Assembly (NCBI RefSeq): GCF_900637655.1
Contig: NZ_LR134384.1
Location: 2,046,001-2,110,000 of the forward strand
Origin: Segatella oris
GTDB taxonomy: Bacteria > Bacteroidota > Bacteroidia > Bacteroidales > Bacteroidaceae
DNA length: 64,000 nt
Reading direction: 5' to 3'
Shown here piece by piece: positions 7,602 through 44,180 of the stretch. The notes beneath the pieces are model-generated. The model ran no database searches. It saw only the letters and a program-made list of their open reading frames with translations, and was not told where the DNA came from. A program made the position numbers and the translations under genes. Each line of letters starts with the position of its first letter. Within the stretch, counting starts at the first letter, position 1.

Positions 7602-7711
7602 ATATCATGCGAAAAAGTACTGCAATTTGCATCAAAATACCACGCAATATGCATCAAATCATCACGCGTTTTGAGTCAAAAAGCAATGCAATTAGACTCA
7701 AATTGCAATGT
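7602..7711 (+). repeat. 22-base-period degenerate array, copy 1 (5 units)
   Basis: Five consecutive 22-base units occupy the otherwise empty 7332-7910 interval between hemW and the lipoprotein gene. The unit reads roughly AATnTGCATCAAA followed by a variable stretch ending in ACGC or ATGC. The anchor TGCATCAA/TGAGTCAA recurs at 7628, 7650, 7672 and 7694, exactly 22 bases apart. No ORF or spacer-repeat structure is present, so it is not a CRISPR array. Related arrays lie near 17.8, 28.4, 36.1 and 44.1 kb. The rest of this gap is AT-rich, with no other feature seen. Confidence 0.75.
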
Positions 7712-7912
7712 ATAACGAGGCAGATTACACCCTAACCTTCACAAAATTACAGAACAACATGCTCTTTTTTGCACCATCTATCAGCTTTATTTCTCCAGAA
7801 TAAACTACTCGGAAGTGTTAAAAAGTGACAGTAATCTTTACAAAAGAAAGAAGGCATGGAAACACAGTCACTGCTAAATTAGAATATCAACAGGCGACAT
7901 TCAAAGAATAAC

Positions 7913-7951
7913 TACAAACAAAAAAACCGCTGAACCTTAATGGTTCAGCGG
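7913..7951 (-). terminator. Terminator of the small lipoprotein gene
   Basis: A perfect 10-base stem, CCGCTGAACC / GGTTCAGCGG, surrounds a 5-base loop. On the minus strand a long T tract follows, the complement of the A-rich stretch at 7913-7926. Confidence 0.9.
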
Positions 7952-7983
7952 CAATCTCTCATTTTTTCAGTTCGAGTGCAAAA

Positions 7984-8151
7984 TTATTTTGCAGTGTCAG
8001 CAGCAGCTGTGTCAACAGCAGCAGTATCAGCAGTATCAACCTGAGCAATAGAGTCAGAGTCGTTATTACCAGCATTTGCTGCAGTTTTGTTACCACAAGA
8101 TGCGAAAGAGATAGCTGCTACAGCTACGAACATTAAAACTAATTTCTTCAT
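7984..8151 (-). CDS. Small secreted lipoprotein, Asp/Ala/Thr-rich
   Basis: The start chosen is MKKLVLMFVAVAAISFASCGNK. A longer ATG 30 bases upstream would only add a basic leader. The 55-residue product has a lipoprotein signal with lipobox FASC. It continues as a low-complexity acidic tail with repeats of the type DTADTAAVDTAA. After processing it would be a short, disordered, lipid-anchored peptide. Proteins like this are common in Prevotella and Bacteroides; no function is known to me. It has a -7 box at 8204-8211 and a strong terminator, so it is a well-expressed single gene. Confidence 0.8.
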   Translation of the reverse strand: MKKLVLMFVAVAAISFASCGNKTAANAGNNDSDSIAQVDTADTAAVDTAAADTAK

Positions 8152-8203
8152 TTTCTTTGCTTTTTTAAATCTGTAAAACAATCATTTGTTTATTAAAACG
8201 ATG

Positions 8204-8211
8204 CAAAGATA
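8204..8211 (-). promoter_or_regulatory. -7 box of the small lipoprotein gene
   Basis: TATCTTTG on the minus strand is an exact TAnnTTTG match, about 50 bases before the ATG at 8151. Confidence 0.5.
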
Positions 8212-8366
8212 AGTATTTTTTTTATATGACATTCAACTTTTAACGACTTTTTTTTGTTCTCTCTGTAACTTTTTATTAAACAGCTGATACACAGCGACTT
8301 ATAAATATTAAAATAATGTTAACAAAATGATTGACTGTTGAGGATAATACTTATCACTGAAGATAA

Positions 8367-8406
8367 GAGATGTCTCCGACAGGTAAAAATCAGCCGGAAA
8401 CATCTC
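8367..8406 (-). terminator. Hairpin after carB
   Basis: A 14-base inverted repeat (GAGATGTCTCCGAC / GCCGGAAACATCTC, with two G-U pairs) lies 17 bases after the carB stop. No strong T run follows, so it may be a weak terminator or an mRNA-stabilising hairpin. Confidence 0.6.
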
Positions 8407-8422
8407 TATGAAACCTCTATCC

Positions 8423-11400
8423 TTAGTATTCATTCCAGGATTTAATATCAATATCATCAAGTGTCATCGTGCAGAAAGCATTGATGAAAGCACTTGCCAA
8501 GCGGCTATTCGTAATCAGTGGCACATTAAGGTCAATCGCAGCACGCCGAATTTTATAACCATTAGTCAGTTCATGCACCGTCAGGTTCTTCTGAATATTA
8601 ACGACCAGATCAATCTTTCGCTCGTGCAACAGATCCAAAGCCTGTGGTTGTTGTCCCGCTTCCGATGGCCAGTAAACCCGCGTATTGGCTATACCATTCT
8701 CTTCGAGAAACTTACTGGTGCCACCAGTGGCATAGAGTTCATAGCCATGTGCAACCAATTGTTTGGCAGCATCAAGCATATCAACTTTCTGTTTTGCACC
8801 ACCTGTAGAAAGCAGTACTGTCTTCTTAGGAATTCGCTGCCCTACAGACAGCATGCTTTTCAACAGCGCGGCATTCGTATCATCAGCCAAACAGCCAACT
8901 TCTCCCGTAGAGCTCATATCAACACCCAGCACAGGATCGGCCTTCTGCAAACGGTTGAAAGAGAATTGACTGGCCTTGATGCCCACATAATCAAGGTCGA
9001 AAAGGTTCTTACTTGGCTTCTCAACAGGCAGTCCAAGCATCACTCGCGTGGCCAATTCTATAAGATTAATCTTCAATACCTTACTTACAAATGGGAATGA
9101 ACGACTGGCACGCAGATTACACTCGATAACCAGTATGTCATTATCTCGGGCCATAAACTGAATATTGAAAGGGCCGTTGATATGAAGTTGCTTGGCAATC
9201 TGCCGACTTATACGTTTAATACGACGCACCGTCTCTACGTAGAGCTTTTGCGGGGGGAACTGAATGGTGGCATCTCCAGAGTGAACTCCGGCAAACTCTA
9301 TATGCTCACTGATAGCATAAGCAAGTATCTCTCCATTCTTAGCTACGGCATCCATCTCGATTTCCTTAGCATGCTCAATGAACTTTGAGACTACAACTGG
9401 ATGGTCTTCACTGACATTTGCCGCCAATTGGAGGAAGCGTTTCAGTTCTTCTTCGTTGGAACAGACATTCATAGCTGCACCGGAAAGTACATAAGAAGGA
9501 CGCACAAGCACGGGGAAACCGACTCTACTGATAAACTCATCTATATCTTCCATACTCGTCAAGGCACTCCACTCTGGTTGATTGATGCCATTTTCGGTCA
9601 GCATAGATGAGAACTTTGCACGGTCTTCTGCACCGTCAATATCCTGCGCTTTAGTGCCTAAGATAGGCACATTCTGCTCATCAAGCTTCATCGCCAGATT
9701 GTTTGGAATCTGTCCGCCAGTACTAACTATCACGCCATGTGGATTCTCCATTTCGATGATATCCATGACACGCTCGAATGTCAGCTCATCAAAATAAAGA
9801 CGGTCACACATATCATAATCTGTTGAAACGGTCTCTGGATTATAGTTTATCATTACAGAACGCCAGCCTTCCTTGCGGATAGTATTCAACGCCTGCACAC
9901 CACACCAGTCGAATTCAACGGAACTTCCAATACGATAAGCACCCGAACCAAGTACGATAACAGAGCGTTTGTCATTTTCAAACGTAATATCACTCTTCAC
10001 ACCACCATAGGTAACATAAAGGTAATTCGTCTGTGCAGGATACTCAGCAGCAAGGGTATCAATCTGCTTCACCACAGGAAGGATACCATAAAACTTACGC
10101 TTATTTCGAACCAACATGGCTGCCTTATGCATATTTCCTATTTCCTTTTCCAACCCAATAGCACGTGCTATCTGAAAGTCGGTGAAACCATAAACCTTTG
10201 CCGTACGCAGCAATTCCTTATCCAACGTGTTGATATTGTTCTTCTTCAACGCCTCATCAATATCGATGATGTGTTTCAGTTTTTCCAAGAACCATTTATC
10301 AATCTTGGTGAGTTCGTGTATCTGATCTACCGTATAATCCTTATGCATGGCCTTCGATATGACGAAAACACGCTTGTCGGTAGGTTCACGAAGAGCTGCA
10401 TCAAGGTCTTCTATCTTGAGCTCCTTGTTCTCAACAAAGCCATGCATTCCCTGACCAATCATGCGAAGTCCTTTCTGAATAGCTTCTTCAAAGTTACGAC
10501 CAATAGCCATAACTTCACCGACAGACTTCATACTTGACCCCAATTCCTTGTCTACACCGTGGAATTTGGAAAGGTCCCAACGAGGAATTTTGCAGACCAC
10601 ATAATCGAGAGCAGGCTCAAAGAAAGCACTGGTCGTTCTGGTAACAGAGTTCTTCAACTCAAAAAGTCCATAGCCCATACCCAGCTTGGCAGCGACAAAA
10701 GCCAAAGGATAGCCCGTAGCTTTCGAGGCAAGTGCAGACGAACGAGACAATCGGGCATTAACTTCAATAACACGATAGTCCTCACTCTTGGGGTCGAAAG
10801 CATACTGCACGTTACACTCTCCTACAATACCTATATGGCGAACAATCTTGATTGACAGTGCGCGAAGCTTGTGGTATTCACTGTTAGTCAATGTCTGAGA
10901 AGGTGCAATAACAATACTTTCACCGGTATGAATGCCCAAAGGGTCGAAGTTTTCCATGTTACAAACCGTCACACAGTTGTCATAACGGTCACGCACCACC
11001 TCATATTCTATCTCTTTCCAACCTTTCAAACTCTTTTCAACAAGCACTTGAGGGGAAAAAGAAAAGGCCTTTTCACAAAGTTTGTTCAGTTCAGTTTCAT
11101 CATCAGCAAAACCTGAACCCAGTCCACCTAATGCATAAGCAGCACGCACGATGACAGGATAACCAAGAGAAGACGCAGCTTTTCGGGCTTCTTCAACATT
11201 TTCACAAGCCTCACTCTTAATGGTCTTTACATGAATTTCATTCAGCTGTTCAACAAAGAGTTCACGATCTTCAGTATTCATAATGGCAGCAACTGGTGTA
11301 CCCAACACCTTGACACCGTACTTTGCAAACACACCCATTTGTTCTAATTCCACACCACAATTGAGCGCTGTCTGTCCACCGAAAGAGAGCAAAACGCCAT

Positions 11401-11647
11401 CAGGATGTTCCTTTTGAATAACCCGTTCTACGAAATAAGGCTGCACAGGAAGAAAGTAAATCCGGTCAGCAACGCCTTCAGAAGTCTGGACTGTAGCAAT
11501 ATTCGGATTGATAAGAACGGTCTCAATACCCTCCTCATGCAATGCTTTAAGCGCCTGTGAACCCGAATAGTCAAACTCTCCGGCTTCGCCAATCTTTAAG
11601 GCTCCCGAACCAAGGAGTAACACTTTCTTTATATTTTCGTCTTTCAT
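8423..11647 (-). CDS. carB: Carbamoyl-phosphate synthase large subunit
   Basis: The 1074-residue length matches the family (about 1070). There are two ATP-grasp halves. The first starts IKKVLLLGSGALKIGEAGEFDYSGSQALKAL and the second starts RSVIVLGSGAYRIGSSVEFDWCGVQAL. A C-terminal MGS-like allosteric domain (KQLVAHGYELYATGGTSKFL, about 940-1074) ends the protein. It makes carbamoyl phosphate from ammonia, bicarbonate and two ATP, feeding pyrimidine and arginine synthesis. It lies 7 bases after carA, so the two subunits are co-translated. A hairpin follows the stop. Confidence 0.97.
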   Translation of the reverse strand: MKDENIKKVLLLGSGALKIGEAGEFDYSGSQALKALHEEGIETVLINPNIATVQTSEGVADRIYFLPVQPYFVERVIQKEHPDGVLLSFGGQTALNCGVELEQMGVFAKYGVKVLGTPVAAIMNTEDRELFVEQLNEIHVKTIKSEACENVEEARKAASSLGYPVIVRAAYALGGLGSGFADDETELNKLCEKAFSFSPQVLVEKSLKGWKEIEYEVVRDRYDNCVTVCNMENFDPLGIHTGESIVIAPSQTLTNSEYHKLRALSIKIVRHIGIVGECNVQYAFDPKSEDYRVIEVNARLSRSSALASKATGYPLAFVAAKLGMGYGLFELKNSVTRTTSAFFEPALDYVVCKIPRWDLSKFHGVDKELGSSMKSVGEVMAIGRNFEEAIQKGLRMIGQGMHGFVENKELKIEDLDAALREPTDKRVFVISKAMHKDYTVDQIHELTKIDKWFLEKLKHIIDIDEALKKNNINTLDKELLRTAKVYGFTDFQIARAIGLEKEIGNMHKAAMLVRNKRKFYGILPVVKQIDTLAAEYPAQTNYLYVTYGGVKSDITFENDKRSVIVLGSGAYRIGSSVEFDWCGVQALNTIRKEGWRSVMINYNPETVSTDYDMCDRLYFDELTFERVMDIIEMENPHGVIVSTGGQIPNNLAMKLDEQNVPILGTKAQDIDGAEDRAKFSSMLTENGINQPEWSALTSMEDIDEFISRVGFPVLVRPSYVLSGAAMNVCSNEEELKRFLQLAANVSEDHPVVVSKFIEHAKEIEMDAVAKNGEILAYAISEHIEFAGVHSGDATIQFPPQKLYVETVRRIKRISRQIAKQLHINGPFNIQFMARDNDILVIECNLRASRSFPFVSKVLKINLIELATRVMLGLPVEKPSKNLFDLDYVGIKASQFSFNRLQKADPVLGVDMSSTGEVGCLADDTNAALLKSMLSVGQRIPKKTVLLSTGGAKQKVDMLDAAKQLVAHGYELYATGGTSKFLEENGIANTRVYWPSEAGQQPQALDLLHERKIDLVVNIQKNLTVHELTNGYKIRRAAIDLNVPLITNSRLASAFINAFCTMTLDDIDIKSWNEY

Positions 11648-11654
11648 CGTCTTT

Positions 11655-12731: not shown

Positions 12732-12789
12732 TATATACCTTTATATAAAGTTTAAACAAATCATTTTATCCTTCTGCTATTATCTGTCA

Positions 12790-14676: not shown

Positions 14677-14689
14677 CTCTTTGATTTGA

Positions 14690-16534: not shown

Positions 16535-16567
16535 GTTTTCGTCTGATTATTTTATATCTATGATATT

Positions 16568-16612
16568 AAAAAAAGAAGAATGAAACCGATTAGAAATCAA
16601 TCATCATTCTTC
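16568..16612 (-). terminator. Terminator between the polysaccharide export gene and glmS
   Basis: A 9-base stem, GAAGAATGA / TCATTCTTC, is followed on the minus strand by seven T residues. It would end transcripts of the export gene before glmS, although some read-through is possible. Confidence 0.75.
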
Positions 16613-16628
16613 ATTTTCCTTTTTCATT

Positions 16629-17405
16629 CTATTTTAACACCGTTACTAAGAGAGAAGTCAAACTGGTAACTATCCCAACAAAGGAGAACCAAAGCGACGT
16701 CGAAGTGCCGATTATCGAGTTACGAGCCTTCACCTTGTTCGGTTCAACATAGATTACATCGTTTTGCTGCAAATAGTAATAAGGAGAGTTCACGATGTTC
16801 GCATCATTCAAGTTCAAGCGATGATACTCCTTTCCACCGTCAGCATTCTCGCGCAAGAGTATGATATTATCACGCTTTCCATAAACCGTAAGGTCACCAG
16901 CCTGCGCCAAAGCCTCAATAATGCTCATCTTCTCCGTTGACACAGGAATGACTCCCGGAGAGCCAACTTCACCTATCACCGTGATGCGATAGCTTGATGT
17001 CCGCACTGTAACGATAGGCTTCTCTTCATCTGAAAGATAAGGGGCCAACTTGCGTTTTATCAAGTCTTCGCACTGTTCTTTCGTGAGACCTGTCACATGT
17101 ATCTTGCCGATTACGGGAAAATTTATATCCCCCTTGTTGTCAACTAAATAACCTTGGGAAGCACTACTGGTGCTCTGCCCGTTGGTTCCCGTCAGATTAA
17201 ATGGGGCTGAAACCGCCGGATCAACTGTATTAACAGTAATCGTCAACAAGTCTTTTGGCATGATATGCGCATCATAAAGACCTTTAGATGCCGCGAAATC
17301 TACCTGATCAATATTTTGAAAATAGGGCACTTTCTTTACCGAAGCACAACTGCTCAGAAATAAAACTATCGCTAAAACAAACAGCGAAGACAATGTTTTC
17401 TTCAT
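16629..17405 (-). CDS. Polysaccharide export lipoprotein (Wza/BexD family)
   Basis: The 258-residue protein has a lipoprotein signal with lipobox SSCASVK. Its polysaccharide biosynthesis/export domain contains PKDLLTITVNTVDP and DINFPVIGKIHVTGLTKEQCEDLIKRKL. An SLBB-type domain contains VIGEVGSPGVIPVSTEKMSIIEALAQAGDLTVYGKRDNIILLRE. A C-terminal hydrophobic helix (LWFSFVGIVTSLTSLLVTVL) could cross the outer membrane, as in Wza. The usual partner, a Wzc-like chain-length/tyrosine kinase, is not next to it here. It has a strong own promoter. Confidence 0.88.
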   Translation of the reverse strand: MKKTLSSLFVLAIVLFLSSCASVKKVPYFQNIDQVDFAASKGLYDAHIMPKDLLTITVNTVDPAVSAPFNLTGTNGQSTSSASQGYLVDNKGDINFPVIGKIHVTGLTKEQCEDLIKRKLAPYLSDEEKPIVTVRTSSYRITVIGEVGSPGVIPVSTEKMSIIEALAQAGDLTVYGKRDNIILLRENADGGKEYHRLNLNDANIVNSPYYYLQQNDVIYVEPNKVKARNSIIGTSTSLWFSFVGIVTSLTSLLVTVLK

Positions 17406-17433
17406 ATCCTTATTTGGGTAAATTAAACCTTTG

Positions 17434-17797: not shown

Positions 17798-17885
17798 AGC
17801 TTGCAACAAGCCTCACTTTAGCCTGCAAAATGACACAGATCAGAGGCTGAAGTGACGCTAAATACCGTGTAATGTGACACAAATC
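17798..17885 (-). repeat. 22-base-period degenerate array, copy 2 (4 units)
   Basis: Read on the minus strand, four 22-base units begin GATTTGTGTCAC, ATTTAGCGTCAC, GATCTGTGTCAT and AAAGTGAGGCTT. They share the xxTGnnTCAnnTT frame of the other arrays. The fourth unit resembles the fourth unit of the array at 28.4 kb more than its own neighbours. It fills part of the 17466-18033 gap, which otherwise holds nothing convincing; a 92-codon open frame there is judged spurious. Confidence 0.65.
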
Positions 17886-18033
17886 ACGACACAGAATAAC
17901 CGAAAAGGCAATACAAGAGTATATTTTCCACTAAGTCCTTTTCTATTTCATGGAAAATCAGATGCACTTTTTTAGTGAATAAAATCTTACATAACGATGT
18001 GTTTCTCAAATCTTGTCAACCCGTTTTATACAA

Positions 18034-18066: not shown

Positions 18067-18073
18067 CATTTCG

Positions 18074-18289: not shown

Positions 18290-18317
18290 CTACTCTCTGA
18301 AACATTGCATTTCATTT

Positions 18318-28428: not shown

Positions 28429-28516
28429 AGTTTGCAACATGAGGCACTTTGCATTGTAATATGAGCCATATTACAACATGAAATGAGGCATATTGCACGC
28501 TATTCTGACGCAAATT
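28429..28516 (-). repeat. 22-base-period degenerate array, copy 3 (4 units)
   Basis: On the minus strand the units begin AATTTGCGTCAG, AATATGCCTCAT, AATATGGCTCAT and AAAGTGCCTCAT, exactly 22 bases apart. The first unit matches a unit of the 7.6-kb array at about 17 of 22 positions. The array fills the gap between the convergent ends of rpmA and uxaC, between their two terminators. Confidence 0.72.
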
Positions 28517-28544
28517 AAAACAGCAGAAGAAACAAGTGAACCAC

Positions 28545-32676: not shown

Positions 32677-35604
32677 TTACATCGGCCGTCTGACGAAACC
32701 ACCTGGGACTCCTCTTCTCCCGGGTCTTTCCATCGGCAGACCAGGCATTCCCTTAGGTGCAGCCTTTCCTCCAAACAGGTTCAGACGATAGACCACATGG
32801 AGCATGGCATAGCTGTAAATGCTATTATACTCTGTATCACTACGCATGAGCGCATTGACCACACGACTGAAATTACTTTGCTGATGAAGAATATCATAGA
32901 ACTGCAAACTTATCGTCAGAGGCTTTCCTTTCATCAATCCTTGAGAAAACTGTGCATTCCATATCAGTTCGTTGGTATTCATAGAGGCATCACTGTAACC
33001 TCGACGTGAATTGTTATGCAGGTCTGTTGCCACCGACATTCCCCATGGAAACGTGACATTCAACGAACCTCCATAGGCAAATTGCCATGTGTCAAGATTG
33101 CTTCTTTGCTGAAGCTGATTGCGACTGTGTGTATAGTTCAGTGAGCCATCAAGAGCAAATTCAAGCCAACTGTTACGCAGGCTGGCCTCTATCCGTTCAC
33201 CCAAAGACGTGGAACGGGTTGTATTCTTTACAGAGGACGAACCGGCATTCTGAGCTGCATAGGCCACATAATTATTATAGTTCACATTTGTAAAGGTGTT
33301 GATATTGAAATACCCTGTAGAGTCAATAGCCGTGTTGAACATGAAAGCTCCCATCACATTCCAGTTTCCATTGATGTTTTCGGGCTGAATGGTCCGCCCA
33401 CCCGTCTTCTCATCATAGGTCACCTTGTCACTGATGCTGTTATGTGTGTTGCTATAGTTCACAAAAGTCATGATAGCCCGTTGCCTGTTTTCTATATAAT
33501 TATTGTAAAACAACCTAAAGTTGTTGGTAAACGAAGGCTTCAGGCCAGGATTACCTTTTGAGACATTCAGAGGGTCACTGTCGTCAGTGATATCCAGAAG
33601 CTGTGATATGCCGGGCTGAGCAGTAGTACCGCGATAGCTGATGCGGAAATTGCTCACCTTGCTGAAACGATAACGGAAATCGAGTGTAGGCGAGAAGTTG
33701 GTCACCGTGCGCACAGTGTCAACATGAACACCCTGATAATCCTGCCTGTATTCCGATTTCTGTGGCTGAAGCATCACGCCGACATTCAAATTATACTTCT
33801 TACGGATAACGCGCAACATCAACTGAAAATCATGAATATAATTACGATACTCCGAAAAACGACTCAAATTACTGTCATAATAACTTTCAAGCGGATTTGT
33901 CAGACGCGCGAGATAATGATTCCATGCACCATATTCCAGTGGTAGCCCACTGAAAAATGTTTCTCCCAGATTACTGAAATCATAGGTTGAGCGGTCGCTC
34001 TTGCTGTACTTATACTGGAACTCATAAGTGAATTGCAGAAACATCGCCCGCAGGATTGGTTCACTATAAGCAAAGCACAGGCTGTAACCATAGTTCGTTG
34101 TTGGCATAAGTTTCCAACGGTTTTTCTGATAGGTAGAGTCAAGCCCCATGGCATTCATCACCTGATAAAGATGAACATTGCTCAACGACAGATTACGGTT
34201 GTCGCGCATTCCATAGTTACCACCGACACGCAATGTGACATTACGCCCCCGACTTCCAAACTTACGATTAAACTGGAGCACACCCTTTATGCTCTTATTC
34301 TCATTATTACTGATGCCACTGTTCTCACGCTTATTGACCATTAGCCCCTCTGCATCGAGTTTTTCAATAGACTCGGCAGCCAGCGGATTGACCACATAGA
34401 GATAAGGGTCGGCATTGAATGAGGCCGAGAGATTACTTGTGAGATTATCACTATTGGTATAACTGAACTGTGGCCGAAACATAATATTCGTCATCGTATC
34501 GGGCTTCCATTCCAGACGCAGACGCCCCTCCCACGAATCACTGCGCGACAAAGTGAACTTATTGCTGTTGGAAAAAGCACCAACCTTACTGACAAAATTC
34601 TCAACAGAGCCAATTGCATTCACATCTCCGTCAGAATGATTCCAACGCAGGGATGCATCGAGTTGCAGTTTGTCCTTCAATTCAAAGTTATAGTTCACAC
34701 CAAGCATCTTTGAAGCATTAAGCCCCTGTAATTCACTACCGAAGCCACGAAAGCCTCCGCCAGGAAACCCCTTGTCATTGATGTTATTGGCATTTGCAAA
34801 CACCATGAAACGATTCTTATCATTGAAATAACTGCCCATGGCTTTCTCCGCATAACGATGATCAGTGCCAATGCCCAAATCAACATTGCCAAACACTCCC
34901 TTGTTCATACCTGGTTTCATGCCGAAATCAAGCACAGCTTCTTCTTCGCCATCATCTATGCCGGTGACTTTTGCCATATCACTCTTCTGATCATAGGCCT
35001 TGATTTTATTGATAACTGAGACAGGAATGTTCTTCAAAGCAGTCTTCGTGTCACCTGCCATGAATTCTTTTCCTTCAACAAGAATCTTCTTAACCTCCCT
35101 GCCATTAATCGTAATCTTTCCGTCATCACTGACCTGTGCACCCGGCAAGCGCTTCACCAACTCTTCTATCGTAGACCCTTCAGGAGTTCTGAATGCCGAT
35201 GCATTATAGATGAAAGTATCTTCTTTCAGCGACACTTTAGTGGCCTGTCCCGTAATGGTTGCCCCTTTCAGCATCACGGCATCAGCACTGACAAGTATCG
35301 TTCCAAAATCCACATCTTTCCCACCTCTGATATCTGCATGCTTGACAACGGTTTTATAACCCACGCTCGTAATCCTAACAAGGAAGTTCCCATCGCCAGG
35401 CGCTTTCACTGAAAACCTACCATTATTGTCAGAAATGGCACCCGCCACAAATGAACTGTCCTTAACCCGAAGCAGCTGAACAGTCGTCTGCGCCAATGCT
35501 TCCTTGGTGTCTTTATCTGAAAGCGTCCCACTTATCTGGCGACTTTGTGCAAGACAGACCGTCCATGTGATTGTCAAAAACAAGACTGCAATTATCCTTC
35601 TCAT
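32677..35604 (-). CDS. Large outer-membrane beta-barrel protein (carboxypeptidase-regulatory domain, TonB-receptor-like)
   Basis: The 975-residue protein has a signal peptide (MRRIIAVLFLTITWTVCLAQ). A CarboxypepD-regulatory-like domain follows (RQISGTLSDKDTKEALAQTTVQL). Next is a plug-like region (IEELVKRLPGAQVSDDGKITINGREVKKILVEGKEF), then a long barrel of aromatic strands. This matches the 'outer membrane beta-barrel family' (OMP_b-brl_3) of Bacteroidota, related to TonB-dependent receptors but without a SusD partner here. After the last strand (HVVYRLNLF) comes an unusual Gly/Pro/Arg/Met-rich tail (GMPGLPMERPGRRGVPGG). The substrate is unknown. Only a weak distant -7 box (minus TATCTTTG, 35869-35876) was found. 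Confidence 0.85.
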   Translation of the reverse strand: MRRIIAVLFLTITWTVCLAQSRQISGTLSDKDTKEALAQTTVQLLRVKDSSFVAGAISDNNGRFSVKAPGDGNFLVRITSVGYKTVVKHADIRGGKDVDFGTILVSADAVMLKGATITGQATKVSLKEDTFIYNASAFRTPEGSTIEELVKRLPGAQVSDDGKITINGREVKKILVEGKEFMAGDTKTALKNIPVSVINKIKAYDQKSDMAKVTGIDDGEEEAVLDFGMKPGMNKGVFGNVDLGIGTDHRYAEKAMGSYFNDKNRFMVFANANNINDKGFPGGGFRGFGSELQGLNASKMLGVNYNFELKDKLQLDASLRWNHSDGDVNAIGSVENFVSKVGAFSNSNKFTLSRSDSWEGRLRLEWKPDTMTNIMFRPQFSYTNSDNLTSNLSASFNADPYLYVVNPLAAESIEKLDAEGLMVNKRENSGISNNENKSIKGVLQFNRKFGSRGRNVTLRVGGNYGMRDNRNLSLSNVHLYQVMNAMGLDSTYQKNRWKLMPTTNYGYSLCFAYSEPILRAMFLQFTYEFQYKYSKSDRSTYDFSNLGETFFSGLPLEYGAWNHYLARLTNPLESYYDSNLSRFSEYRNYIHDFQLMLRVIRKKYNLNVGVMLQPQKSEYRQDYQGVHVDTVRTVTNFSPTLDFRYRFSKVSNFRISYRGTTAQPGISQLLDITDDSDPLNVSKGNPGLKPSFTNNFRLFYNNYIENRQRAIMTFVNYSNTHNSISDKVTYDEKTGGRTIQPENINGNWNVMGAFMFNTAIDSTGYFNINTFTNVNYNNYVAYAAQNAGSSSVKNTTRSTSLGERIEASLRNSWLEFALDGSLNYTHSRNQLQQRSNLDTWQFAYGGSLNVTFPWGMSVATDLHNNSRRGYSDASMNTNELIWNAQFSQGLMKGKPLTISLQFYDILHQQSNFSRVVNALMRSDTEYNSIYSYAMLHVVYRLNLFGGKAAPKGMPGLPMERPGRRGVPGGFVRRPM

Positions 35605-36074
35605 TTCGTTTATTCTAATATAAAAGTCTGATAGGTTAGACGCCTAAAACCAAAAACCGTTTAATCAGAGTGCATATTTCTTCATAAAACACGTCCAACA
35701 TCACCACCCCACATTTGCCATTTTCGCTTCATACACTCACCCCCAAAAGCAACCTATATTTCCAAGAGAGAGAGTTAAATTATAACAATATTAATCAACA
35801 GATTTACCATGAGTCGCTTTACCTTTTCTTCAATGAATAAGGAGAAACATTTTAACAGGTATCTTTTACAAAGATAAAACATCATATGAAGAAAACCATA
35901 AAAAAGAGGTTTCCGCGAGAGTTAACAGAAGTTAAAGAGAATAAGGCGCCTGTTTGCACCCACAAAAGAGACCATTTACAAAGAACATGTGCAAGAAAAA
36001 GAACACTATAAACGCACACAAAAACTCATTCTGCTCGGGATAAGACAAAATGAGGTTTCATCACATGGCGTTTC

Positions 36075-36184
36075 AACTTACATTGAATCACCTCGCAATT
36101 CAAGTCATTCTACGGCCTGATTTGATTCAGAAAGCAATGTAATCTATCTCAAATTGCCATGTAAACTGATATGAATTAAACTCA
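36075..36184 (+). repeat. 22-base-period degenerate array, copy 4 (about 5 units)
   Basis: The best units are GATTTGATTCAGAAAGCAAT(GT) at 36119 and AATCTATCTCAAATTGCCAT(GT) at 36141, with weaker flanking units in the same 22-base phase. The TCA anchor recurs at 36105, 36127 and 36149. It lies in the 1-kb divergent gap 35605-36654. The remainder of that gap (35640-36060) is AT-rich with nothing else recognisable except the inverted-repeat element at 36215. Confidence 0.6.
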
Positions 36185-36214
36185 CTGATGAAAAAACTTT
36201 GCCCAAGATTCTCT

Positions 36215-36483
36215 AAAATATTACATATTACATATTACATGTAACATTTAGGTCGATACACTGTTTTGAGGATTAGGAGAGAGAGATAGTTTATTATAAT
36301 ATATAAATTATTATATATTATAATAATATAATAATACTAATAATTATTATATATAATCTCTATAAAGCTATCAATCTGTAAGCATCCAGCCTCTCTTATG
36401 CATCATGCGCAATTATGCATTATGAATTGTGAATTAACATATGGTGCTAAATGTTACATGTAATATGTAATATGTAATATTTT
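36215..36483 (+). mobile_element. MITE-like inverted-repeat element, complete copy A
   Basis: A 269-base AT-rich element is bounded by perfect 36-base inverted repeats (36215-36250 and 36448-36483). The left arm begins AAAATATTACATATTACATA and ends TGTAACATTTA. Its core (36285-36387, from GATAG through CTATC to GCATCC) is 103 bases. It matches the core of the copy at 60.4 kb, which also measures 103 bases but is inverted. It encodes no protein. No target-site duplication is obvious. Confidence 0.8.
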
Positions 36484-36592
36484 GAAAGTTCACAACTCTC
36501 TCCTACTCTACGCCTAAAAAATTTTATCTCACACTCTCACAACAAGTTAACTAAACATTAACAGCTCGACAGGCATGGGTAAGCTCCAAAAA

Positions 36593-36624
36593 TTTGCATA
36601 ATTCAGATTCTTTTTATAACTTTG
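36593..36624 (+). promoter_or_regulatory. Promoter of the DUF4494-yggS pair
   Basis: TTTG at 36593-36596 and TAACTTTG at 36617-36624 are 20 bases apart, with the ATG 30 bases downstream. Confidence 0.78.
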
Positions 36625-36654
36625 CTCAACAAATAAAACATAATAAAAGAAAAG

Positions 36655-37179
36655 ATGAGAAGCAGAACCGCAGTTTGGTTTGAAACCAAAATACGTTACG
36701 AAAAAACAATGGAAGACGGCATGCAGAAAAAAGTGTCTGAAAGCTATGTCGTAGATGCCTTGAGCTTTACCGAGGCCGAGAACACCATTATTGAAGAGAT
36801 GCGCGTTTATATCAGTGGAGAATTCAAAGTGACCGACTTGAAGCAAGCAGCTTACGGAGAGATATTCTTCAGCGATGCCGATGCTGACGACAAATGGTAT
36901 AAGAGCAGACTGCAATTCATTACCATTGACGAGAAAACCGAAAAGGAGAAGCGCTCAACAGTGACTTACTTAGTACAGGCAGGAAGCGTTCCGGCGGCCG
37001 TGAAGCATATAGAGGAAGTCATGGGAGGAACACTGATTGACTATGTCATCGTGAGCATTCAGGAAACCCAGATCATGGATGTATTCGAGCACAATGGCCC
37101 CAAGAAGAACCCAGGCGGAGGCAATGACGTTCCGGAATATGAGGCCCCTGAAAAATCAGAAGAACCGACAGTTGAATAA
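36655..37179 (+). CDS. DUF4494 family protein
   Basis: The 174-residue cytoplasmic protein starts MRSRTAVWFETKIRYEKTMEDGMQKKVSESYVVDALSFTEAE. It has alternating strands and helices and ends in a Pro/Glu/Gly-rich tail (GGGNDVPEYEAPEKSEEPTVE). This matches the Bacteroidota-specific DUF4494 family, which has no assigned function. It is followed by yggS after 6 bases and shares its promoter, so a role linked to PLP homeostasis or to the same growth conditions is possible (inference). Confidence 0.8.
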   Translation: MRSRTAVWFETKIRYEKTMEDGMQKKVSESYVVDALSFTEAENTIIEEMRVYISGEFKVTDLKQAAYGEIFFSDADADDKWYKSRLQFITIDEKTEKEKRSTVTYLVQAGSVPAAVKHIEEVMGGTLIDYVIVSIQETQIMDVFEHNGPKKNPGGGNDVPEYEAPEKSEEPTVE

Positions 37180-37185
37180 AGGCGT

Positions 37186-37860: not shown

Positions 37861-37894
37861 ACCTGCAAAGAAGATATCGTTTCAAAAAAATTAC

Positions 37895-37902
37895 TACCTT
37901 TG
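37895..37902 (+). promoter_or_regulatory. -7 box of the aminotransferase gene
   Basis: TACCTTTG lies 53 bases before the ATG at 37956. It supports that start over the much longer in-frame opening that would overlap yggS. Confidence 0.5.
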
Positions 37903-37955
37903 CAAACAAAACGAAGAATGATGGTCTGAAAAGCCATTTCAAAAAGAACAATTTT

Positions 37956-39164: not shown

Positions 39165-39173
39165 CAGCCAACC

Positions 39174-40421
39174 TTGAACCTACCTCTTTTCATAGCAAGG
39201 AAAATCTATGGTGGCAAGACCGAGGGAAAACAAGTATCTCGCCCTGCCATACGAATAGCTACGGCAGGCGTGGCTATCGGTCTTGCCGTGATGTTGATAT
39301 CGGTGAGTGTCGTGTTGGGCTTCAAACATACTATCCGCGACAAGGTTATCGGATTTGGAAGCCACATTCAGGTGGGTAGCTTCATGACTTTGCAAACAGG
39401 TGACTTCTACCCCATTCAAATGGATGACTCGATGCTGACCGTTCTGAAAACGATTCCGGGAGTGAAGCATGTTCAGCGCTATGCTATGAAACAAGGCATT
39501 CTCAAAACCGACCACGACTTTTTGGGAGTGATATTCAAAGGAATAGGGGCTGAATATGACACAACTTTCCTGCATCAAAACATGCGCCAAGGCCATATTC
39601 CGCGCTTCACGGACAATGCCTCAAGCAACAAGATTCTCATTTCACAAAGCATTGCCGACAAATTGGGGGTGAAGGCCAATGACAAGATTTACAGTTACTT
39701 CATCGACAAAAACGGTGTGCGCACCCGACGTTTTACCATAGAAGGAGTCTATCAGACCAATCTCTCACAATATGATGACATCACCTGCTTTACCGACCTC
39801 TATACGGCCGTAAGACTCAATGGGTGGGAAGACGACCAGACAACAGGGGCAGAGCTGACCGTCAAGGATTTCAGCCAGTTAGACGATGTAGAAAACCTTG
39901 TGGTGAAAAAAGTGAACCGCACACTCGACCACTATGGTGAAACCTATTCTTCGAAAACCATTCGCGAACTGTGTCCCCAAATCTTCTCGTGGCTCGACCT
40001 GCTCGACCTCAATGTATGGATTATTTTGGCATTGATGATTGCCGTGGCTGGCGTAACGATGATTTCCGGTTTGCTCATTATCATTCTTGAACGAACCGTG
40101 ATGATAGGTATTCTGAAAGCATTGGGCGCCCGAAATAAAACCATTCGCCATACCTTCATGTGGTTTGCCGCCTTCATCATTGGCAAAGGAATGCTGATCG
40201 GCAATATTGTCGGACTTGGACTGATTTCCCTTCAACAGTTTACAGGCCTTGTCAAGCTCAATCCACAGACCTATTATGTCAACACAGTCCCTGTGGAATA
40301 CAACATTCCATTGTTCATCATTCTGAACGTAGCCACCCTACTGATTTGTCTTTTTGTGCTCATAGCCCCAAGCTATCTGATTTCTCATATACATCCCGCT
40401 AAATCCATGCGGTACGAGTAA
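39174..40421 (+). CDS. LolC/LolE-type ABC transporter permease
   Basis: The 415-residue protein begins LPLFIARKIYG and probably starts at a TTG codon, since no ATG fits the conserved N-terminus. The first membrane helix (about 24-48) is followed by a MacB-like periplasmic domain. Three C-terminal helices follow (IILALMIAVAGVTMISGLLIIIL, FMWFAAFIIGKGMLIGNIVGLGLI, FIILNVATLLICLFVLI), the FtsX fold. This matches Bacteroidota LolE-type permeases for lipoprotein release. Its ATPase (LolD) is not adjacent. Confidence 0.82.
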   Translation: MNLPLFIARKIYGGKTEGKQVSRPAIRIATAGVAIGLAVMLISVSVVLGFKHTIRDKVIGFGSHIQVGSFMTLQTGDFYPIQMDDSMLTVLKTIPGVKHVQRYAMKQGILKTDHDFLGVIFKGIGAEYDTTFLHQNMRQGHIPRFTDNASSNKILISQSIADKLGVKANDKIYSYFIDKNGVRTRRFTIEGVYQTNLSQYDDITCFTDLYTAVRLNGWEDDQTTGAELTVKDFSQLDDVENLVVKKVNRTLDHYGETYSSKTIRELCPQIFSWLDLLDLNVWIILALMIAVAGVTMISGLLIIILERTVMIGILKALGARNKTIRHTFMWFAAFIIGKGMLIGNIVGLGLISLQQFTGLVKLNPQTYYVNTVPVEYNIPLFIILNVATLLICLFVLIAPSYLISHIHPAKSMRYE

Positions 40422-40460
40422 TCAAAAACAACTGCTGACAATAAATAATGCACATAAAGT

Positions 40461-40491
40461 TTTGAGATGTGCAGATAATACCTTATCTTTG
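40461..40491 (+). promoter_or_regulatory. Promoter of the acyl-CoA synthetase pair
   Basis: TTTG at 40461-40464 and TATCTTTG at 40484-40491 are separated by 19 bases. The ATG follows at 40515. Confidence 0.75.
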
Positions 40492-40514
40492 CACAAAATT
40501 TTTGATATTGTGCA

Positions 40515-42182
40515 ATGAATTCATTACCAAATTTCAATAGCTACATAGAACAAAGCATCATCAACAATTGGGAGAAGGATGCCCTGACCGATTATAAAGG
40601 AGCCACCCTCCAATTCCATGATGTAGCAAGGAAGATAGAAAAGCTACACATTCTTTTTGAAAACAGCGGTCTTCAGAAAGGCGATAAGATTGCACTATGT
40701 GGCAGAAACAGTTCGCATTGGGCCGTGGCCTTTCTCGCCACACTGACCTATGGTGCCGTTGCCGTACCCGTACAAAACGAATTCAAAGCCGAACAAATAC
40801 ACAACATTGTCAATCATAGCGAGTCAAAACTGCTATTCGTAGGTGATGTCGTGGCTACCGAGATTAACGCTGATGAAATGCCTTCGTTGGAAGGTGTAAT
40901 TTATATTCCCGACTTTTCAGTCATGCTTTCACGTTCTGAAAAGCTGACATACGCTCGCGAACATCTGAACGAAATCTTCGGACATAAATACCCCAAATAT
41001 TTCCGAAAAGAGCATATCCACTATCATGTGGACCAGTCTGAGGAACTGGCATTAATCAATTACACCAGTGGAACAACGGGCTTTTCCAAGGGGGTGATGC
41101 TTCCCTACCGTGCACTCACAAGCAACTATGATTTCCTTGCAGAAGCCATTGGAACCAAACTTCCCAAGCACTGCGATGTGCTGGCAATCCTTCCGATGGG
41201 CCACATGTATGGTATGGTGTGTGAGTTCATTTTGGAATTCTGTTTAGGCAATCATACTTATTTCCTCACAAGACTACCGAGTCCGACGATTATCCAACAG
41301 GCATTTACTGAAATTCGTCCGGCTATCATCGTTGCCGTGCCTTTGGTTGTCGAAAAGATTATCCGGAAAAACGTATTCCCAAAGATACAGACCAACGTGT
41401 ATAAACTGCTGATGAACATGCCTGTCATCAGCAAGAAGGTCAAGGAACGCATTCTCGATATTGTCCGCACAGAGTTTGGTGGCAATATGTATGAGGTCAT
41501 TGTGGGTGGTGCCGGACTGAACAAGGAAATTGAAGACTTCCTCGTAAACATCGGTTTCCCTATCACTATGGGCTATGGAACCACGGAGACGGCTCCTCTG
41601 ATTACCTATACAGACTGGCATGATTTCCAAGCAAGAAGCTGTGGCACTCCCGTCAAGAACATGGAAGTGAAGATTGCAAGTAACGACCCGGAAAACATTC
41701 CAGGAGAGATTATCACGCGTGGACTAAACGTGATGTTGGGCTATTATAAAAACGAAGAGGCCACAAAAGCCGTTATGGATAACGAGGGCTGGTATCACAC
41801 GGGAGACCTCGCTACCATGTCGGCTGACGGACATGTGTTTATCCGCGGACGCATCAAGAATATGCTTCTCGGTGCAAACGGACAGAATGTCTATCCCGAA
41901 GAAATTGAAAACAAGCTGAACTCAATGACCTTGGTAAGTGAATGCCTTGTCCTGCAAAAGGAGGAAAAACTCATAGCATTGGTTCACCCCGACTATGAAG
42001 AGGCCGAAGCCATGGGCTTCAGCGGAGAAGACTTGCAGAGCATTATGGAGCAAAATCGTGGAAATCTTAACGATATGTTGCCAAGCTTTTCAAAGATTTC
42101 CGCTATCCAACTCCATGAAGAAGAATTTGCAAAAACTCCAAAAAAGAGCATCAAACGCTATCTGTATCAGGATGCAATCTAA
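40515..42182 (+). CDS. AMP-dependent synthetase, long-chain acyl-CoA ligase-like (first of a tandem pair)
   Basis: The 555-residue protein has the AMP-binding P-loop LINYTSGTTGFSKGVML (about residues 175-192). Further motifs are MGYGTTETAPLI, GWYHTGDLATMSADGHVFIRGR and the C-terminal catalytic lysine in TPKKSIKRYLY. It should activate a carboxylic acid, probably a fatty acid, to its CoA ester through an acyl-adenylate. It opens a two-gene operon with a close paralogue 51 bases downstream. Its N-terminus lacks the membrane segment of some long-chain ligases. Confidence 0.85.
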   Translation: MNSLPNFNSYIEQSIINNWEKDALTDYKGATLQFHDVARKIEKLHILFENSGLQKGDKIALCGRNSSHWAVAFLATLTYGAVAVPVQNEFKAEQIHNIVNHSESKLLFVGDVVATEINADEMPSLEGVIYIPDFSVMLSRSEKLTYAREHLNEIFGHKYPKYFRKEHIHYHVDQSEELALINYTSGTTGFSKGVMLPYRALTSNYDFLAEAIGTKLPKHCDVLAILPMGHMYGMVCEFILEFCLGNHTYFLTRLPSPTIIQQAFTEIRPAIIVAVPLVVEKIIRKNVFPKIQTNVYKLLMNMPVISKKVKERILDIVRTEFGGNMYEVIVGGAGLNKEIEDFLVNIGFPITMGYGTTETAPLITYTDWHDFQARSCGTPVKNMEVKIASNDPENIPGEIITRGLNVMLGYYKNEEATKAVMDNEGWYHTGDLATMSADGHVFIRGRIKNMLLGANGQNVYPEEIENKLNSMTLVSECLVLQKEEKLIALVHPDYEEAEAMGFSGEDLQSIMEQNRGNLNDMLPSFSKISAIQLHEEEFAKTPKKSIKRYLYQDAI

Positions 42183-42233
42183 AAAATGAAAACTATATCT
42201 AAAGCAAAACAGTAAACCAGAAAAAATAACATT

Positions 42234-43898
42234 ATGGAACAAACACCAAGTTTCAATAGTCTGATACAACAGTCTATCATCGACAATTGGGATAAGGATG
42301 CACTCACAGACTTTAAGGGTGCAACGCTGCAGTATCATGATGTAGCACGTAAGATTGAGAAACTTCACATCATGTTTGAAAGTAGTGGTGTGGTTAAAGG
42401 CAACAAGATTGCACTGGCCGGACGCAACAGTGCCAACTGGGCTGTGGCTTTTCTGGCTACGCTCACCTATGGTTGTGTGGCCGTTCCTATCCTTCATGAA
42501 TTCACACCCGACCAGATGCACAACATCGTTAACCACAGTGAGGCCCGCCTTCTCTTTGTTGGAGATGTTGTAGCCACACAGATTGACGCAACGAAAATGC
42601 CCGGACTTGAAGGCATCATCTATATCCCCGACTACTCGCTTGTGCTCTCACGCACAGACAAACTGACCTATGCGCGCGAGCATCTGAACGAGATGTTTGG
42701 CAAGAAGTATCCTAAATACTTCAGAAAAGAACATGTCAATTACTATATTGACACTGATCCCGAAGAGTTGGCACTCATCAACTACACCAGTGGAACGACA
42801 GGATTTTCCAAGGGCGTGATGATTCCTTATCGTGCATTATGGAGCAACACCTACTTTGCCAACCAAGTATTGGGCAAACAGATTAAATGTGGAGACAATA
42901 TCATCAGTATTCTTCCCATGGCTCATATGTATGGCATGTCGTTTGAATTCATCTTCGAGTTCATCAAAGGTTGTCATATCTTCTACCTTACCCGGGTGCC
43001 AAGTCCGGCCATTATCGCCCAGGCTTTCAGTGAAGTAAAGCCCAAGGTTATCATCAGCGTGCCATTGGTCATCGAGAAGATTATCCGCAAGAAAGTGTTC
43101 CCGAAAATACAGAACAACCGCATGCGCATGCTCCTTCACATGCCTGTTGTGGCTAAGAAAGTGCGCGAAAAGATATGCGAACAGGTTACCAATGCCTTCG
43201 GTGGTGAATTCTATGAAGTCATTATCGGTGGTGCCGCCTTTAATCAAGAGATTGAACGCTTCGTACATCGTATTGGTTTTAAATACACAGTAGGATATGG
43301 TGCCACGGAATGTGCCCCTATCATTTGTTATTCAGATTATAAAGACTTTGTGCCGGGAAGCTGTGGCCGGGCTGTTGTCAACATGAAAGTGAAGATTGAC
43401 AGTCCAGACCCAGAGAATGTACCAGGAGAAATTCTTGCAAAGGGACTCAACGTAATGTTGGGCTATTATAAGAACGAAGAAGCCACGCGTCAGACCATTG
43501 ATGCCGACGGCTGGTATCACACGGGCGACCTCGGAACAATGGATGCCGACGGGAATGTCTTCATCAAAGGACGTTCCAAAAACATGCTCTTGGGTGCAAG
43601 TGGACAGAATATCTACCCTGAAGAGATTGAAGACCGCCTGAACTCAATGCCTATGGTCAATGAGAGTGTAGTGATTCAGGAAGGTGACAAACTCATTGGA
43701 TTGGTTTATCCTGATTATGAAGAGGCCAAGAACATGGGCTTCTCCAACCAAGACTTGGAAACCATCATGGAGCAGAACCGCAACGAACTTAACCAGACGC
43801 AACCCGCCTACTGCAAACTCACGGCTATCCGTATCCATGAAGAAGAGTTCGAGAAAACACCGAAAAAGAGCATCAAGAGATACCTCTATCAAAAGTAA
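42234..43898 (+). CDS. AMP-dependent synthetase, long-chain acyl-CoA ligase-like (second of a tandem pair)
   Basis: The 554-residue protein is collinear with the preceding gene from end to end, with roughly two thirds of residues identical by eye. It keeps the P-loop (INYTSGTTGFSKGVMI), VGYGATECAPII, GWYHTGDLGTMDADGNVFIKGR and TPKKSIKRYLYQ. Both copies look intact, so this is a tandem gene duplication with probable divergence in acyl-chain preference. Differences concentrate around 225-270 (GKQIKCGDNIIS against GTKLPKHCDVLA) and near the acyl pocket. Its promoter is that of the first gene. Confidence 0.85.
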   Translation: MEQTPSFNSLIQQSIIDNWDKDALTDFKGATLQYHDVARKIEKLHIMFESSGVVKGNKIALAGRNSANWAVAFLATLTYGCVAVPILHEFTPDQMHNIVNHSEARLLFVGDVVATQIDATKMPGLEGIIYIPDYSLVLSRTDKLTYAREHLNEMFGKKYPKYFRKEHVNYYIDTDPEELALINYTSGTTGFSKGVMIPYRALWSNTYFANQVLGKQIKCGDNIISILPMAHMYGMSFEFIFEFIKGCHIFYLTRVPSPAIIAQAFSEVKPKVIISVPLVIEKIIRKKVFPKIQNNRMRMLLHMPVVAKKVREKICEQVTNAFGGEFYEVIIGGAAFNQEIERFVHRIGFKYTVGYGATECAPIICYSDYKDFVPGSCGRAVVNMKVKIDSPDPENVPGEILAKGLNVMLGYYKNEEATRQTIDADGWYHTGDLGTMDADGNVFIKGRSKNMLLGASGQNIYPEEIEDRLNSMPMVNESVVIQEGDKLIGLVYPDYEEAKNMGFSNQDLETIMEQNRNELNQTQPAYCKLTAIRIHEEEFEKTPKKSIKRYLYQK

Positions 43899-44070
43899 AA
43901 AAGCAAAAAAACAAGAAAACAGAAAAGAGGACAGAGAGGGTAAAAAAGTAAATGAGACTATTGAATGGAACGATAAGGAAATCATTCCCGACCAAACAAT
44001 TTCCAAATCTTTTTACTCTTTTGTCCTCTTACTTCATGTTTCCTTTACTTTTTACTTTCTAAAAGCATTG

Positions 44071-44180
44071 TAATCTGCATCAAATCATAAGCTAATCTGC
44101 ATCAAGTTACATCGTAATCTGCATCAAGTTATACGATAACTTGCATCAAGTTACAACGCATTCTGCATCAAGTTACAAGC
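44071..44180 (+). repeat. 22-base-period array, copy 5 (5 units, best conserved)
   Basis: Five units each contain TGCATCAA, at 44076, 44098, 44120, 44142 and 44164, exactly 22 bases apart. Four of them continue GTTA(C/T). It lies in the 43899-44302 gap between the convergent ends of the second synthetase and the DUF3127 gene. The rest of the gap is AT- and A/G-rich with no gene seen. Confidence 0.85.

What the first reader, a model, noticed from the sequence alone, without database searches (positions are those of the whole stretch)
7602..44180. Five dispersed intergenic arrays of a degenerate 22-base unit
At 7602-7711, 17798-17885, 28429-28516, 36075-36184 and 44071-44180 the non-coding DNA repeats with an exact 22-base period. 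The loose unit is AATnTGCnTCAAA plus a TTnCAAnGC-like end. Each array has 4-5 units. Three are in one orientation and two in the other. Unit 1 of the 28.4-kb array matches a unit at 7.6 kb at about 17 of 22 positions. Unit 4 at 28.4 kb matches unit 4 at 17.8 kb at about 17 of 22. Copies thus look like relatives of a whole ~100-base element, not independent tandem slippage. Spacing between loci is about 8-10 kb, and every copy is intergenic. A 22-base step is close to two helical turns, so a protein binding the same DNA face repeatedly (nucleoid organiser, terminator or insulator protein) is a concrete hypothesis. It matches no repeat class I can name.
Basis: seen in the sequence. Interest (0 to 1): 0.78.

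Follow-up and report, generated by a model that had tools for sequence, protein, structure and literature searches.

The report
Evenly spaced 22-base palindromic repeat arrays
Short blocks of near-palindromic DNA sites, almost always exactly 22 bases apart, sit between genes about every 13,000 bases in the part of this Prevotella-like chromosome that was read in full, and relatives carry blocks with the same 22-base step but a different spelling, which suggests docking sites for an unknown, fast-changing DNA-binding protein.

Summary
The five arrays are real and part of something larger. Each 22-base unit is a dyad, TGYAATnTGAnTCAnATTRCAn, so the reported orientations mean little. In 997 kb read of this 3.17-Mb genome (closest named relative found: Segatella buccae) I located 113 arrays; a contiguous 464 kb holds 35, one per 13.3 kb, none inside an ORF call of 300 bp or more. 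379 of 384 unit steps are exactly 22. Single units outside arrays are at chance level. RNA-type covariation is lacking. Arrays with the same step but other units occur in other Prevotella/Segatella, Bacteroides and Parabacteroides; none in small samples of four other Bacteroidales families. S. buccae has 28 arrays in 400 kb, in two unrelated motif classes. Spacing is more even than random placement in real gaps in both species (P about 0.003 and 0.0006), and the two S. buccae classes avoid each other. 48 of 113 own arrays carry a shared leader and/or tail, like the BrickBuilt MITE of Porphyromonas (23-base units). Best reading: phased sites for an oligomeric, species-specific DNA-binding protein, dispersed as MITE-like copies and kept at chromosome-scale spacing. 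The protein was not found. The main rival is a selfish element with insertion immunity.

The parts
7621..7729 (.). Array 1: five 22-bp dyad units (7621,7643,7665,7687,7709), in the convergent gap between the hemW-like gene (+) and carB (-)
   Evidence: flanks
7451..7610 (-). 'Tail' of the ~410-bp dispersed element, beside array 1
   Evidence: nhmmer E 8.8e-22
7728..7845 (-). 'Leader' of the ~410-bp dispersed element, beside array 1
   Evidence: nhmmer E 5.8e-06
17802..17888 (.). Array 2: four units, between tRNA-Ser (-) and the polysaccharide-export gene 16629-17405 (-)
28433..28519 (.). Array 3: four units, in the convergent gap between rpmA (L27, +) and uxaC (-); stem-loops read by eye on both sides
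36072..36180 (.). Array 4: five degenerate units, between divergent genes 32677-35604 (-) and 36655-37179 (+); 81% over 130 bp to the array at genome 1843427, which is 85% to 1699941
44069..44177 (.). Array 5: five well-conserved units, in the convergent gap between AMP-binding gene 42234-43898 (+) and 44365-44772 (-)

Best explanation
Each array is a run of mostly 4-7 operator-like dyad sites, one per 22 bp (about two helical turns), so an oligomeric DNA-binding protein can occupy the same face of ~90-150 bp as one complex. Arrays were spread in each lineage as whole copies, partly inside a MITE-like leader-array-tail element. They are kept, one per ~13-14 kb and more evenly spaced than chance, because the bound complexes act on chromosome structure (anchor, domain boundary or condensation site). 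The protein's specificity changes quickly, so species differ in unit sequence while the 22-bp step stays fixed. Shown: dyad unit, step, lack of isolated sites, lack of covariation, placement outside genes, over-dispersion in two species, different units in different genomes, occurrence in part of Bacteroidales in this sample. Inferred: the protein, its oligomer, the chromosome function.
For: Dyad consensus from 475 units. 379 of 384 steps are exactly 22, the other five 23. Outside arrays, 634 kb hold 5 sites scoring >=14 against 4 in Markov sequence, versus 336 inside arrays. No covariation across unit or array dyads, which argues for protein rather than RNA. Neighbouring units match little better than units of different arrays (12.9 vs 12.1 of 22), so the step is not explained by recent slippage. 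Spacing CV 0.54 vs null 0.83, P 0.003, in own; 0.51 vs 0.87, P 0.0006, in S. buccae. The two S. buccae classes avoid each other (nearest 6.5 kb, P 0.0002; mean distance P 0.003), as expected if they do the same job. Same step with other units in other Prevotella/Segatella, Bacteroides and Parabacteroides.
Against: No cognate protein found; Y1 transposase, HU-HIG and Lrp/AsnC checks gave no general partner. Array positions are mostly not shared between this genome and S. buccae (1 of 8 array-bearing gene ends of 22 compared), odd for fixed architecture. 48 of 113 own arrays carry shared flanks, the mark of mobile elements. Units of one array are slightly but significantly more alike than chance (z 2.8-4.4). 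Array RNA folds better than shuffles (mean z -3.3 in 30 arrays), as expected of a palindromic consensus. Not every genome has one motif: Parabacteroides sp. PF5-6 has several, and some arrays elsewhere are not palindromic. No binding data exist here.
Confidence: 0.45

Rival explanations
1. Selfish MITE-like elements: the array is the binding region of a transposase supplied in trans, and bound transposase blocks new insertions nearby (target immunity, as recalled for Tn7 and Mu), which makes spacing even.
For: Leader and/or tail on 48 of 113 own arrays; mostly one-sided shared flank in S. buccae class 2; whole-array homology in order; genome-specific sequences; positions mostly differ between own and S. 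buccae; placement outside genes.
Against: The two unrelated S. buccae classes exclude each other, though immunity would be expected to be family-specific. Few near-identical copies (best pair of >=80 bp 95% over 88 bp, next 87%). Strict 22-bp step kept across strong divergence. No general transposase partner. 65 of 113 arrays have no recognisable leader or tail.
Confidence: 0.27
2. Local transcription element: a roadblock, terminator, insulator or bidirectional promoter acting on adjacent genes.
For: 22 of 45 convergent gaps of at least 150 bp hold an array versus 37 of 176 other gaps in the two species (Fisher P 5e-4; counts, test). BrickBuilt segments drive expression in E. coli in both directions (PMC4596501, abstract and passages).
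Against: Arrays also lie in tandem and divergent gaps (49 tandem, 25 convergent, 17 divergent, one undetermined, of 92); a local role does not predict even spacing or mutual avoidance of classes; window array 3 already has stem-loops beside it (read by eye).
Confidence: 0.15
3. Structured RNA or DNA cruciform/hairpin element.
For: Palindromic units; RNA folding z mean -3.3 in 30 of 90 aligned arrays.
Against: Complementarity within arrays is at or below that of shuffled partners at all seven dyads tested and at nine of ten positions within units, the tenth at z +2.0; no Rfam match in the window at gathering threshold except a tRNA.
Confidence: 0.03
4. Neutral tandem repeats: slippage of a 22-bp unit in intergenic DNA.
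For: Some arrays elsewhere are nearly uniform and not palindromic (L141 11227, L143, L173); slight within-array similarity excess in own.
Against: Own units are nearly as diverged within arrays as between them, yet steps stay 22; 22 is singled out among lags not divisible by three in many genomes.
Confidence: 0.03

Closest known systems
BrickBuilt MITE / minisatellite of Porphyromonas gingivalis (Klein et al. 2015, PMC4596501; I saw the outline with abstract, found passages, and sections 5 and 8)
   Same: Tandem short unit without spacers, always intergenic, many non-identical copies, flanking leader and tail in some copies and neither in others.
   Different: 23-nt unit (here 22), 19 loci against 113 located in a third of this genome, 1-22.8 repeats per locus (here 3-9), within-element mismatch 0-11% and indels 0-6% (here strongly diverged units, almost no indels), no BLASTn match outside the species. 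Section 8 says that short stem-loops from dyad symmetry may occur and predicts long stem-loops; the word 'palindrom' has 0 hits, and in the parts I saw there is no dyad unit definition, regular spacing or cross-species 22-bp rule.
REP/BIME palindromes with RAYT transposases (Nunvar et al. 2010, PMC2817692; start of abstract and found passages seen)
   Same: Palindromic, extragenic, often over 100 copies per genome, differing between species; RAYT partner.
   Different: REPs bear a GTAG-type tag and a hairpin and stand in alternating orientation in BIMEs; here fixed 22-bp tandem arrays, no isolated units above chance, no covariation, and no Y1 transposase association in relatives. 'Bacteroid' and 'Prevotella' have 0 hits in that paper's main text.
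Dispersed chromosome-organising sites such as parS, Noc sites and matS (recalled, not tested by any search)
   Same: Palindromic protein sites spread over a chromosome.
   Different: Those are single short sites with conserved motifs, concentrated in a region; here arrays spread evenly, with species-specific motif.
Plasmid iterons and other 22-bp-phased initiator or transposase sites (recalled)
   Same: Direct repeats two helical turns apart.
   Different: Found at one origin or element end, not at over a hundred chromosomal gaps.

Membership tests
BrickBuilt MITE | 23-nt tandem unit | tested here: not met
   Step is 22 in 379 of 384 intervals; lag 23 shows 2 sites against 99 at lag 22 in own DNA
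BrickBuilt MITE | leader and tail flanks | tested here: inconclusive
   A leader-array-tail element exists for 33 of 113 arrays, one flank only for 15, none for 65; homology of these flanks to BrickBuilt flanks not tested
BrickBuilt MITE | always intergenic | tested here: met
   35 of 35 outside ORF calls of 300 bp or more; 77 of 92 touch no ORF call of 240 bp or more, the other 15 only ORF calls of 240-570 bp that may be spurious
BrickBuilt MITE | terminal inverted repeats | tested here: inconclusive
   None seen by eye in the leader and tail consensus; no systematic test
REP/RAYT | hairpin-forming palindrome with pairing conserved | tested here: not met
REP/RAYT | partner Y1 (tyrosine) transposase beside repeats | tested here: not met
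   In own genome all three Y1 copies lie by arrays, but 29 Y1 loci from relatives (about 2.8 kb each) show only one hit at threshold, not palindromic
CRISPR array | identical repeats separated by unique spacers | tested here: not met
   Units abut at 22 bp with no spacers
Known RNA family | Rfam match | tested here: not met
   only the tRNA in the window, at gathering threshold
Chromosome-organising protein site | bound in vivo by a dedicated protein | not testable with these tools
   no protein identified; no ChIP data
Chromosome-organising protein site | non-random placement along the chromosome | tested here: met
   over-dispersed spacing in two species

The most novel reading that the evidence does not exclude
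A chromosome-wide docking system of Bacteroidaceae and Parabacteroides: a rapidly evolving oligomeric protein binds arrays of 22-bp-phased dyad sites set about every 13-14 kb, defining chromosomal domains or marking self DNA. The geometry is conserved across genera, the sequence 'password' is private to each species, and two passwords can share one chromosome (S. buccae).
Probability: 0.35. Interest if true: 0.93.

Novelty: new variant of a known kind. Interest (0 to 1): 0.82.

Why it matters
How the chromosome of Bacteroidota, dominant gut and mouth bacteria, is folded and divided into domains is poorly known (general knowledge). A set of sites at even ~13-kb intervals, absent as single copies and with a fixed two-turn step, gives a concrete handle: the bait sequence for a species can be read from its genome, so the protein can be pulled down. 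A repeat system that conserves geometry but not sequence across genera would be unusual and would point to strong co-evolution of a DNA-binding protein with over a hundred sites. If it is instead a selfish element with immunity that works across families, that too would be new for MITEs as far as I know.

Tried and rejected
Orientation of arrays: dropped, units are dyads. RNA hairpins: no covariation within units or across whole arrays. Leader and tail as structured RNA: RNAalifold gave E 0.0 for real and shuffled alignments on both strands; little weight, as the alignments are gappy. RAYT/REP: all three Y1_Tnp copies of this genome lie beside arrays, but 29 Y1 loci of relatives do not; read as REP-like elements inserted next to arrays here.

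Cognate protein: HU-HIG (7 own matches, 5 over the cut-off; 3 of 7 loci hold an array within ~1.5 kb, not striking by a rough estimate that no call computed), Lrp/AsnC (2 copies, no array in their 3.2-kb loci), recurrent neighbour families: none convincing. Depletion around dnaA (2586525): R2 matches lie near it on both sides, so rejected. Own-motif arrays on viruses: 0 matches to two strict patterns in viral contigs; the same patterns find only 9 and 2 in 657 kb of own DNA, so the test is weak. A second motif class in the own 464 kb: only four weak lag-22 sites outside the motif arrays.

Conserved positions: gene ends with an array in the window or the blind stretches have an array in 15 of 53 relatives' gaps versus 0 of 40 for other ends, but this rests on few ends (uxaC, wza, carB), one gap can count for two ends, and most loci were chosen by uxaC. 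An earlier version with biased own sampling gave no effect (8 of 10 vs 26 of 37), and own versus S. buccae shows 1 of 8. I do not claim positional conservation; one possible syntenic case is L311, whose flanks match the two neighbours of own array 606216 at 79% and 38%.

Literature: nine full-text searches gave no description of such arrays beyond BrickBuilt among the listings; most subscription papers are not held. PMC5771137 and PMC10969869 were seen in passages only.
Full report
WHAT IS THERE. The unit is a dyad. Over 475 units from 92 own-genome arrays the symmetrised consensus is TGYAATnTGAnTCAnATTRCA plus one base. The commonest seven-base centres are TGACGCA and its complement TGCGTCA (76 and 58 units). 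Left-type units precede right-type units more often than the reverse (34 against 10 neighbouring pairs), so whole arrays lean towards dyad symmetry too.

HOW STRICT. 379 of 384 unit-to-unit steps are exactly 22, the other five are 23 (the chain search charged 4 bits for a step of 21 or 23). Arrays hold 3-9 units, mostly 4-6 (45 with five, 20 with four, 17 with six of 92). Outside arrays, 634 kb contain 5 sites scoring 14 or more, against 4 in Markov-simulated sequence; inside arrays there are 336. Units of one array are hardly more alike than units of different arrays (12.9 of 22 for neighbours, 12.2 for non-neighbours, 12.1 between arrays), though in the aligned set the small excess is significant (z 2.8-4.4). 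So the step has outlived most sequence similarity.

HOW MANY AND WHERE. Own-genome searches with covariance models R1 and R2 returned 220 (E <= 1) and 185 (E <= 0.001) matches (only 150 candidates scored each time, both strands counted). The 92 arrays come from stretches taken mostly around R1 matches plus eleven blind 20-kb stretches. A contiguous 464 kb, without such choice, holds 35 arrays, one per 13.3 kb, none overlapping an ORF call of 300 bp or more; reversed, complemented and Markov controls give none. Together 113 arrays were located in 997 kb; about 240 per genome is an extrapolation from the 464 kb. Flanking genes in the window are ordinary: hemW-like, carB, polysaccharide export, uvrA beyond a tRNA-Ser, rplU-rpmA, uxaC, an AMP-binding enzyme. 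In the two species together, 22 of 45 convergent gaps of at least 150 bp hold an array against 37 of 176 others (counts, test).

PROTEIN, NOT RNA. Across the dyad of a unit, paired positions show no clear excess of complementarity over shuffled partners: of ten positions one has z +2.0, one +0.4, the others are at or below zero, and the innermost is strongly below (0.258 vs 0.472). About all seven unit and inter-unit centres of 90 aligned arrays z is -0.8 to -3.4. The low folding energy of arrays follows from the palindromic consensus.

RELATIVES. A core-agnostic detector (four units, at least 48% pairwise match) finds 99 sites at lag 22 in 657 kb of own DNA against 0-3 at lags 19, 20, 23, 25 and 26, and 17 at 21. 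In 80 named loci around uxaC (1.45 Mb) it finds 44 intergenic sites at lag 22 against 2-9 at lags 17, 19, 20, 23, 25, 26 and 28 and 4-24 at multiples of three. By group: 30 in 1087 kb of Prevotella-like and 14 in 367 kb of Bacteroides-like loci, the latter including Phocaeicola, Mediterranea and Parabacteroides; 14 in 240 kb of five further Prevotella genomes, of which several look like AT-rich chance hits (lags 18 and 20 give 5 each there; units); 0 in 160 kb of four other Bacteroidales families; 1 AT-rich hit in 400 kb of ten other Bacteroidota. With 40 kb per genome the negatives are weak for any one family. Of 68 arrays kept from 36 genomes by a stricter cut, 48 pass a dyad criterion, and unit similarity is 0.335 within a genome (58 pairs) against 0.152 between genomes (2220 pairs); 34 within-genome pairs exceed the 99th percentile of the others. 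Some of these loci had been fetched by similarity to the own motif, which biases this upward. Not every genome is uniform: Parabacteroides sp. PF5-6 has arrays of several motifs. The own-type motif is found in 9 of 60 genomes of a first set and 35 of 348 genus genomes, own included both times (strict filters), and the cores of those loci vary from genome to genome while the outer TGYAAT...ATTRCA is often kept.

SEGATELLA BUCCAE. In 400 kb of S. buccae ATCC 33574 there are 28 arrays in two unrelated classes: nine of GTGCAnnGnCnnTGCAC, each of exactly four units, and nineteen of TnAnTnGGnCCnAnTnA with 3-6 units. One weak class-2 array has a step of 21, another an internal unit that does not score. 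Own motif finds none there, and the reverse. Nine of the 28 lie within ORF calls of 300 bp or more, eight of these under 650 bp; after dropping ORF calls under 650 bp that enclose an array, 25 of 28 lie in a gap. One array sits just inside the start of a 2.3-kb ORF call, possibly a wrong start.

SPACING. Placing the same number of arrays at random in real gaps of at least 150 bp gives mean CV 0.83-0.91 in own and 0.87-0.88 in S. buccae; observed are 0.541 (35 arrays; 0.546 for the 32 strongest) and 0.514 (P 0.0002-0.0036 and 0.0006-0.0008). Spacings under 5 kb: 2 against 9-10 expected (own) and 1 against 6.5-7 (S. buccae). Class 2 alone: P 0.009-0.011; class 1 alone is not significant (P 0.19-0.20, n 9). 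Class 1 and class 2 keep at least 6.5 kb apart (P 0.0002; mean distance P 0.003).

MOBILE SIDE. 33 of 113 own arrays have both a ~130-bp leader and a ~160-bp tail, 12 tail only, 3 leader only, 65 neither; one tail lacks an array. Window array 1 has both (7728-7845 and 7451-7610); the other four window arrays have neither. S. buccae class 2 arrays share a mostly one-sided ~100-bp flank; class 1 arrays show none at E 1e-4. Units in the same place of an array match better between arrays than units in different places (S. buccae class 1: 14.0 vs 12.6 of 22, 0 of 2000 shuffles as high; own: 12.87 vs shuffled maximum 12.57 in 60). So arrays were copied as wholes. Array positions are mostly not shared between own and S. 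buccae (1 of 8).

READING. The facts fit phased operator sites for an oligomeric protein, spread in MITE fashion and then held at chromosome-scale spacing. The alternative I rate next is a selfish element with immunity; the mutual avoidance of two unrelated classes in one genome speaks against it but is one case. The weakest point is that no protein is known. Closest published relative: BrickBuilt of P. gingivalis (PMC4596501; seen in part). Nine literature searches of the held library listed no account of the clade-wide 22-bp rule or of even spacing.

Noticed in passing
window 36215-36483 and 60375-60701: Two MITE-like elements with 44- and 47-bp inverted ends and a shared 104-bp AT-rich stretch (91%), edged by 7-bp tandem repeats; similar single ends at 53046-53097 and 63453-63503.
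   Followed up: no
window 52939-53094, 55489-55591, 60703-60755, 63450-63618: Clusters of degenerate 7-base tandem repeats (AATTATG/ATGTAAT/AATGTGG types).
   Followed up: no
window 53089-53233, 61373-61513, 61619-61786: Dispersed CCTCTCCC / GGAGAGG imperfect inverted repeats, three places.
   Followed up: no
window 61694-61741: Perfect 13-base tandem repeat, 3.7 copies.
   Followed up: no
L043, L044, L045, L046 (own genome 610881, 624154, 669038 and related stretches at 643308-644059, 695689-696620, 977980-978709): Y1 transposase elements with many hairpin (REP-like) repeats next to 22-bp arrays; related stretches between paired arrays have no Y1 match, and one copy has an internal stop.
   Followed up: partly
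L202, genome 1421256-1421600: An array lies about 200 bp upstream of a gene for an HU-HIG type DNA-binding protein.
   Followed up: partly
window 60930-61373: ORF overlapping an HU-HIG (PF18291) match, window 60933-61277.
   Followed up: no
L141 11227 and 11450; L174 2897 and 3004; L179 3279 and 3369: Two adjacent 22-bp arrays with different units in the same intergenic gap.
   Followed up: no
L143 19288, L173 11443, L141 11227: 22-bp arrays with little or no dyad symmetry, so the step can occur without the dyad.
   Followed up: no
window 40526-42074 and 42245-43796: Tandem duplicate genes, 71-72% DNA identity over 300-base pieces; the second ORF (42234-43898) matches AMP-binding enzyme, the first was not scanned.
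   Followed up: no
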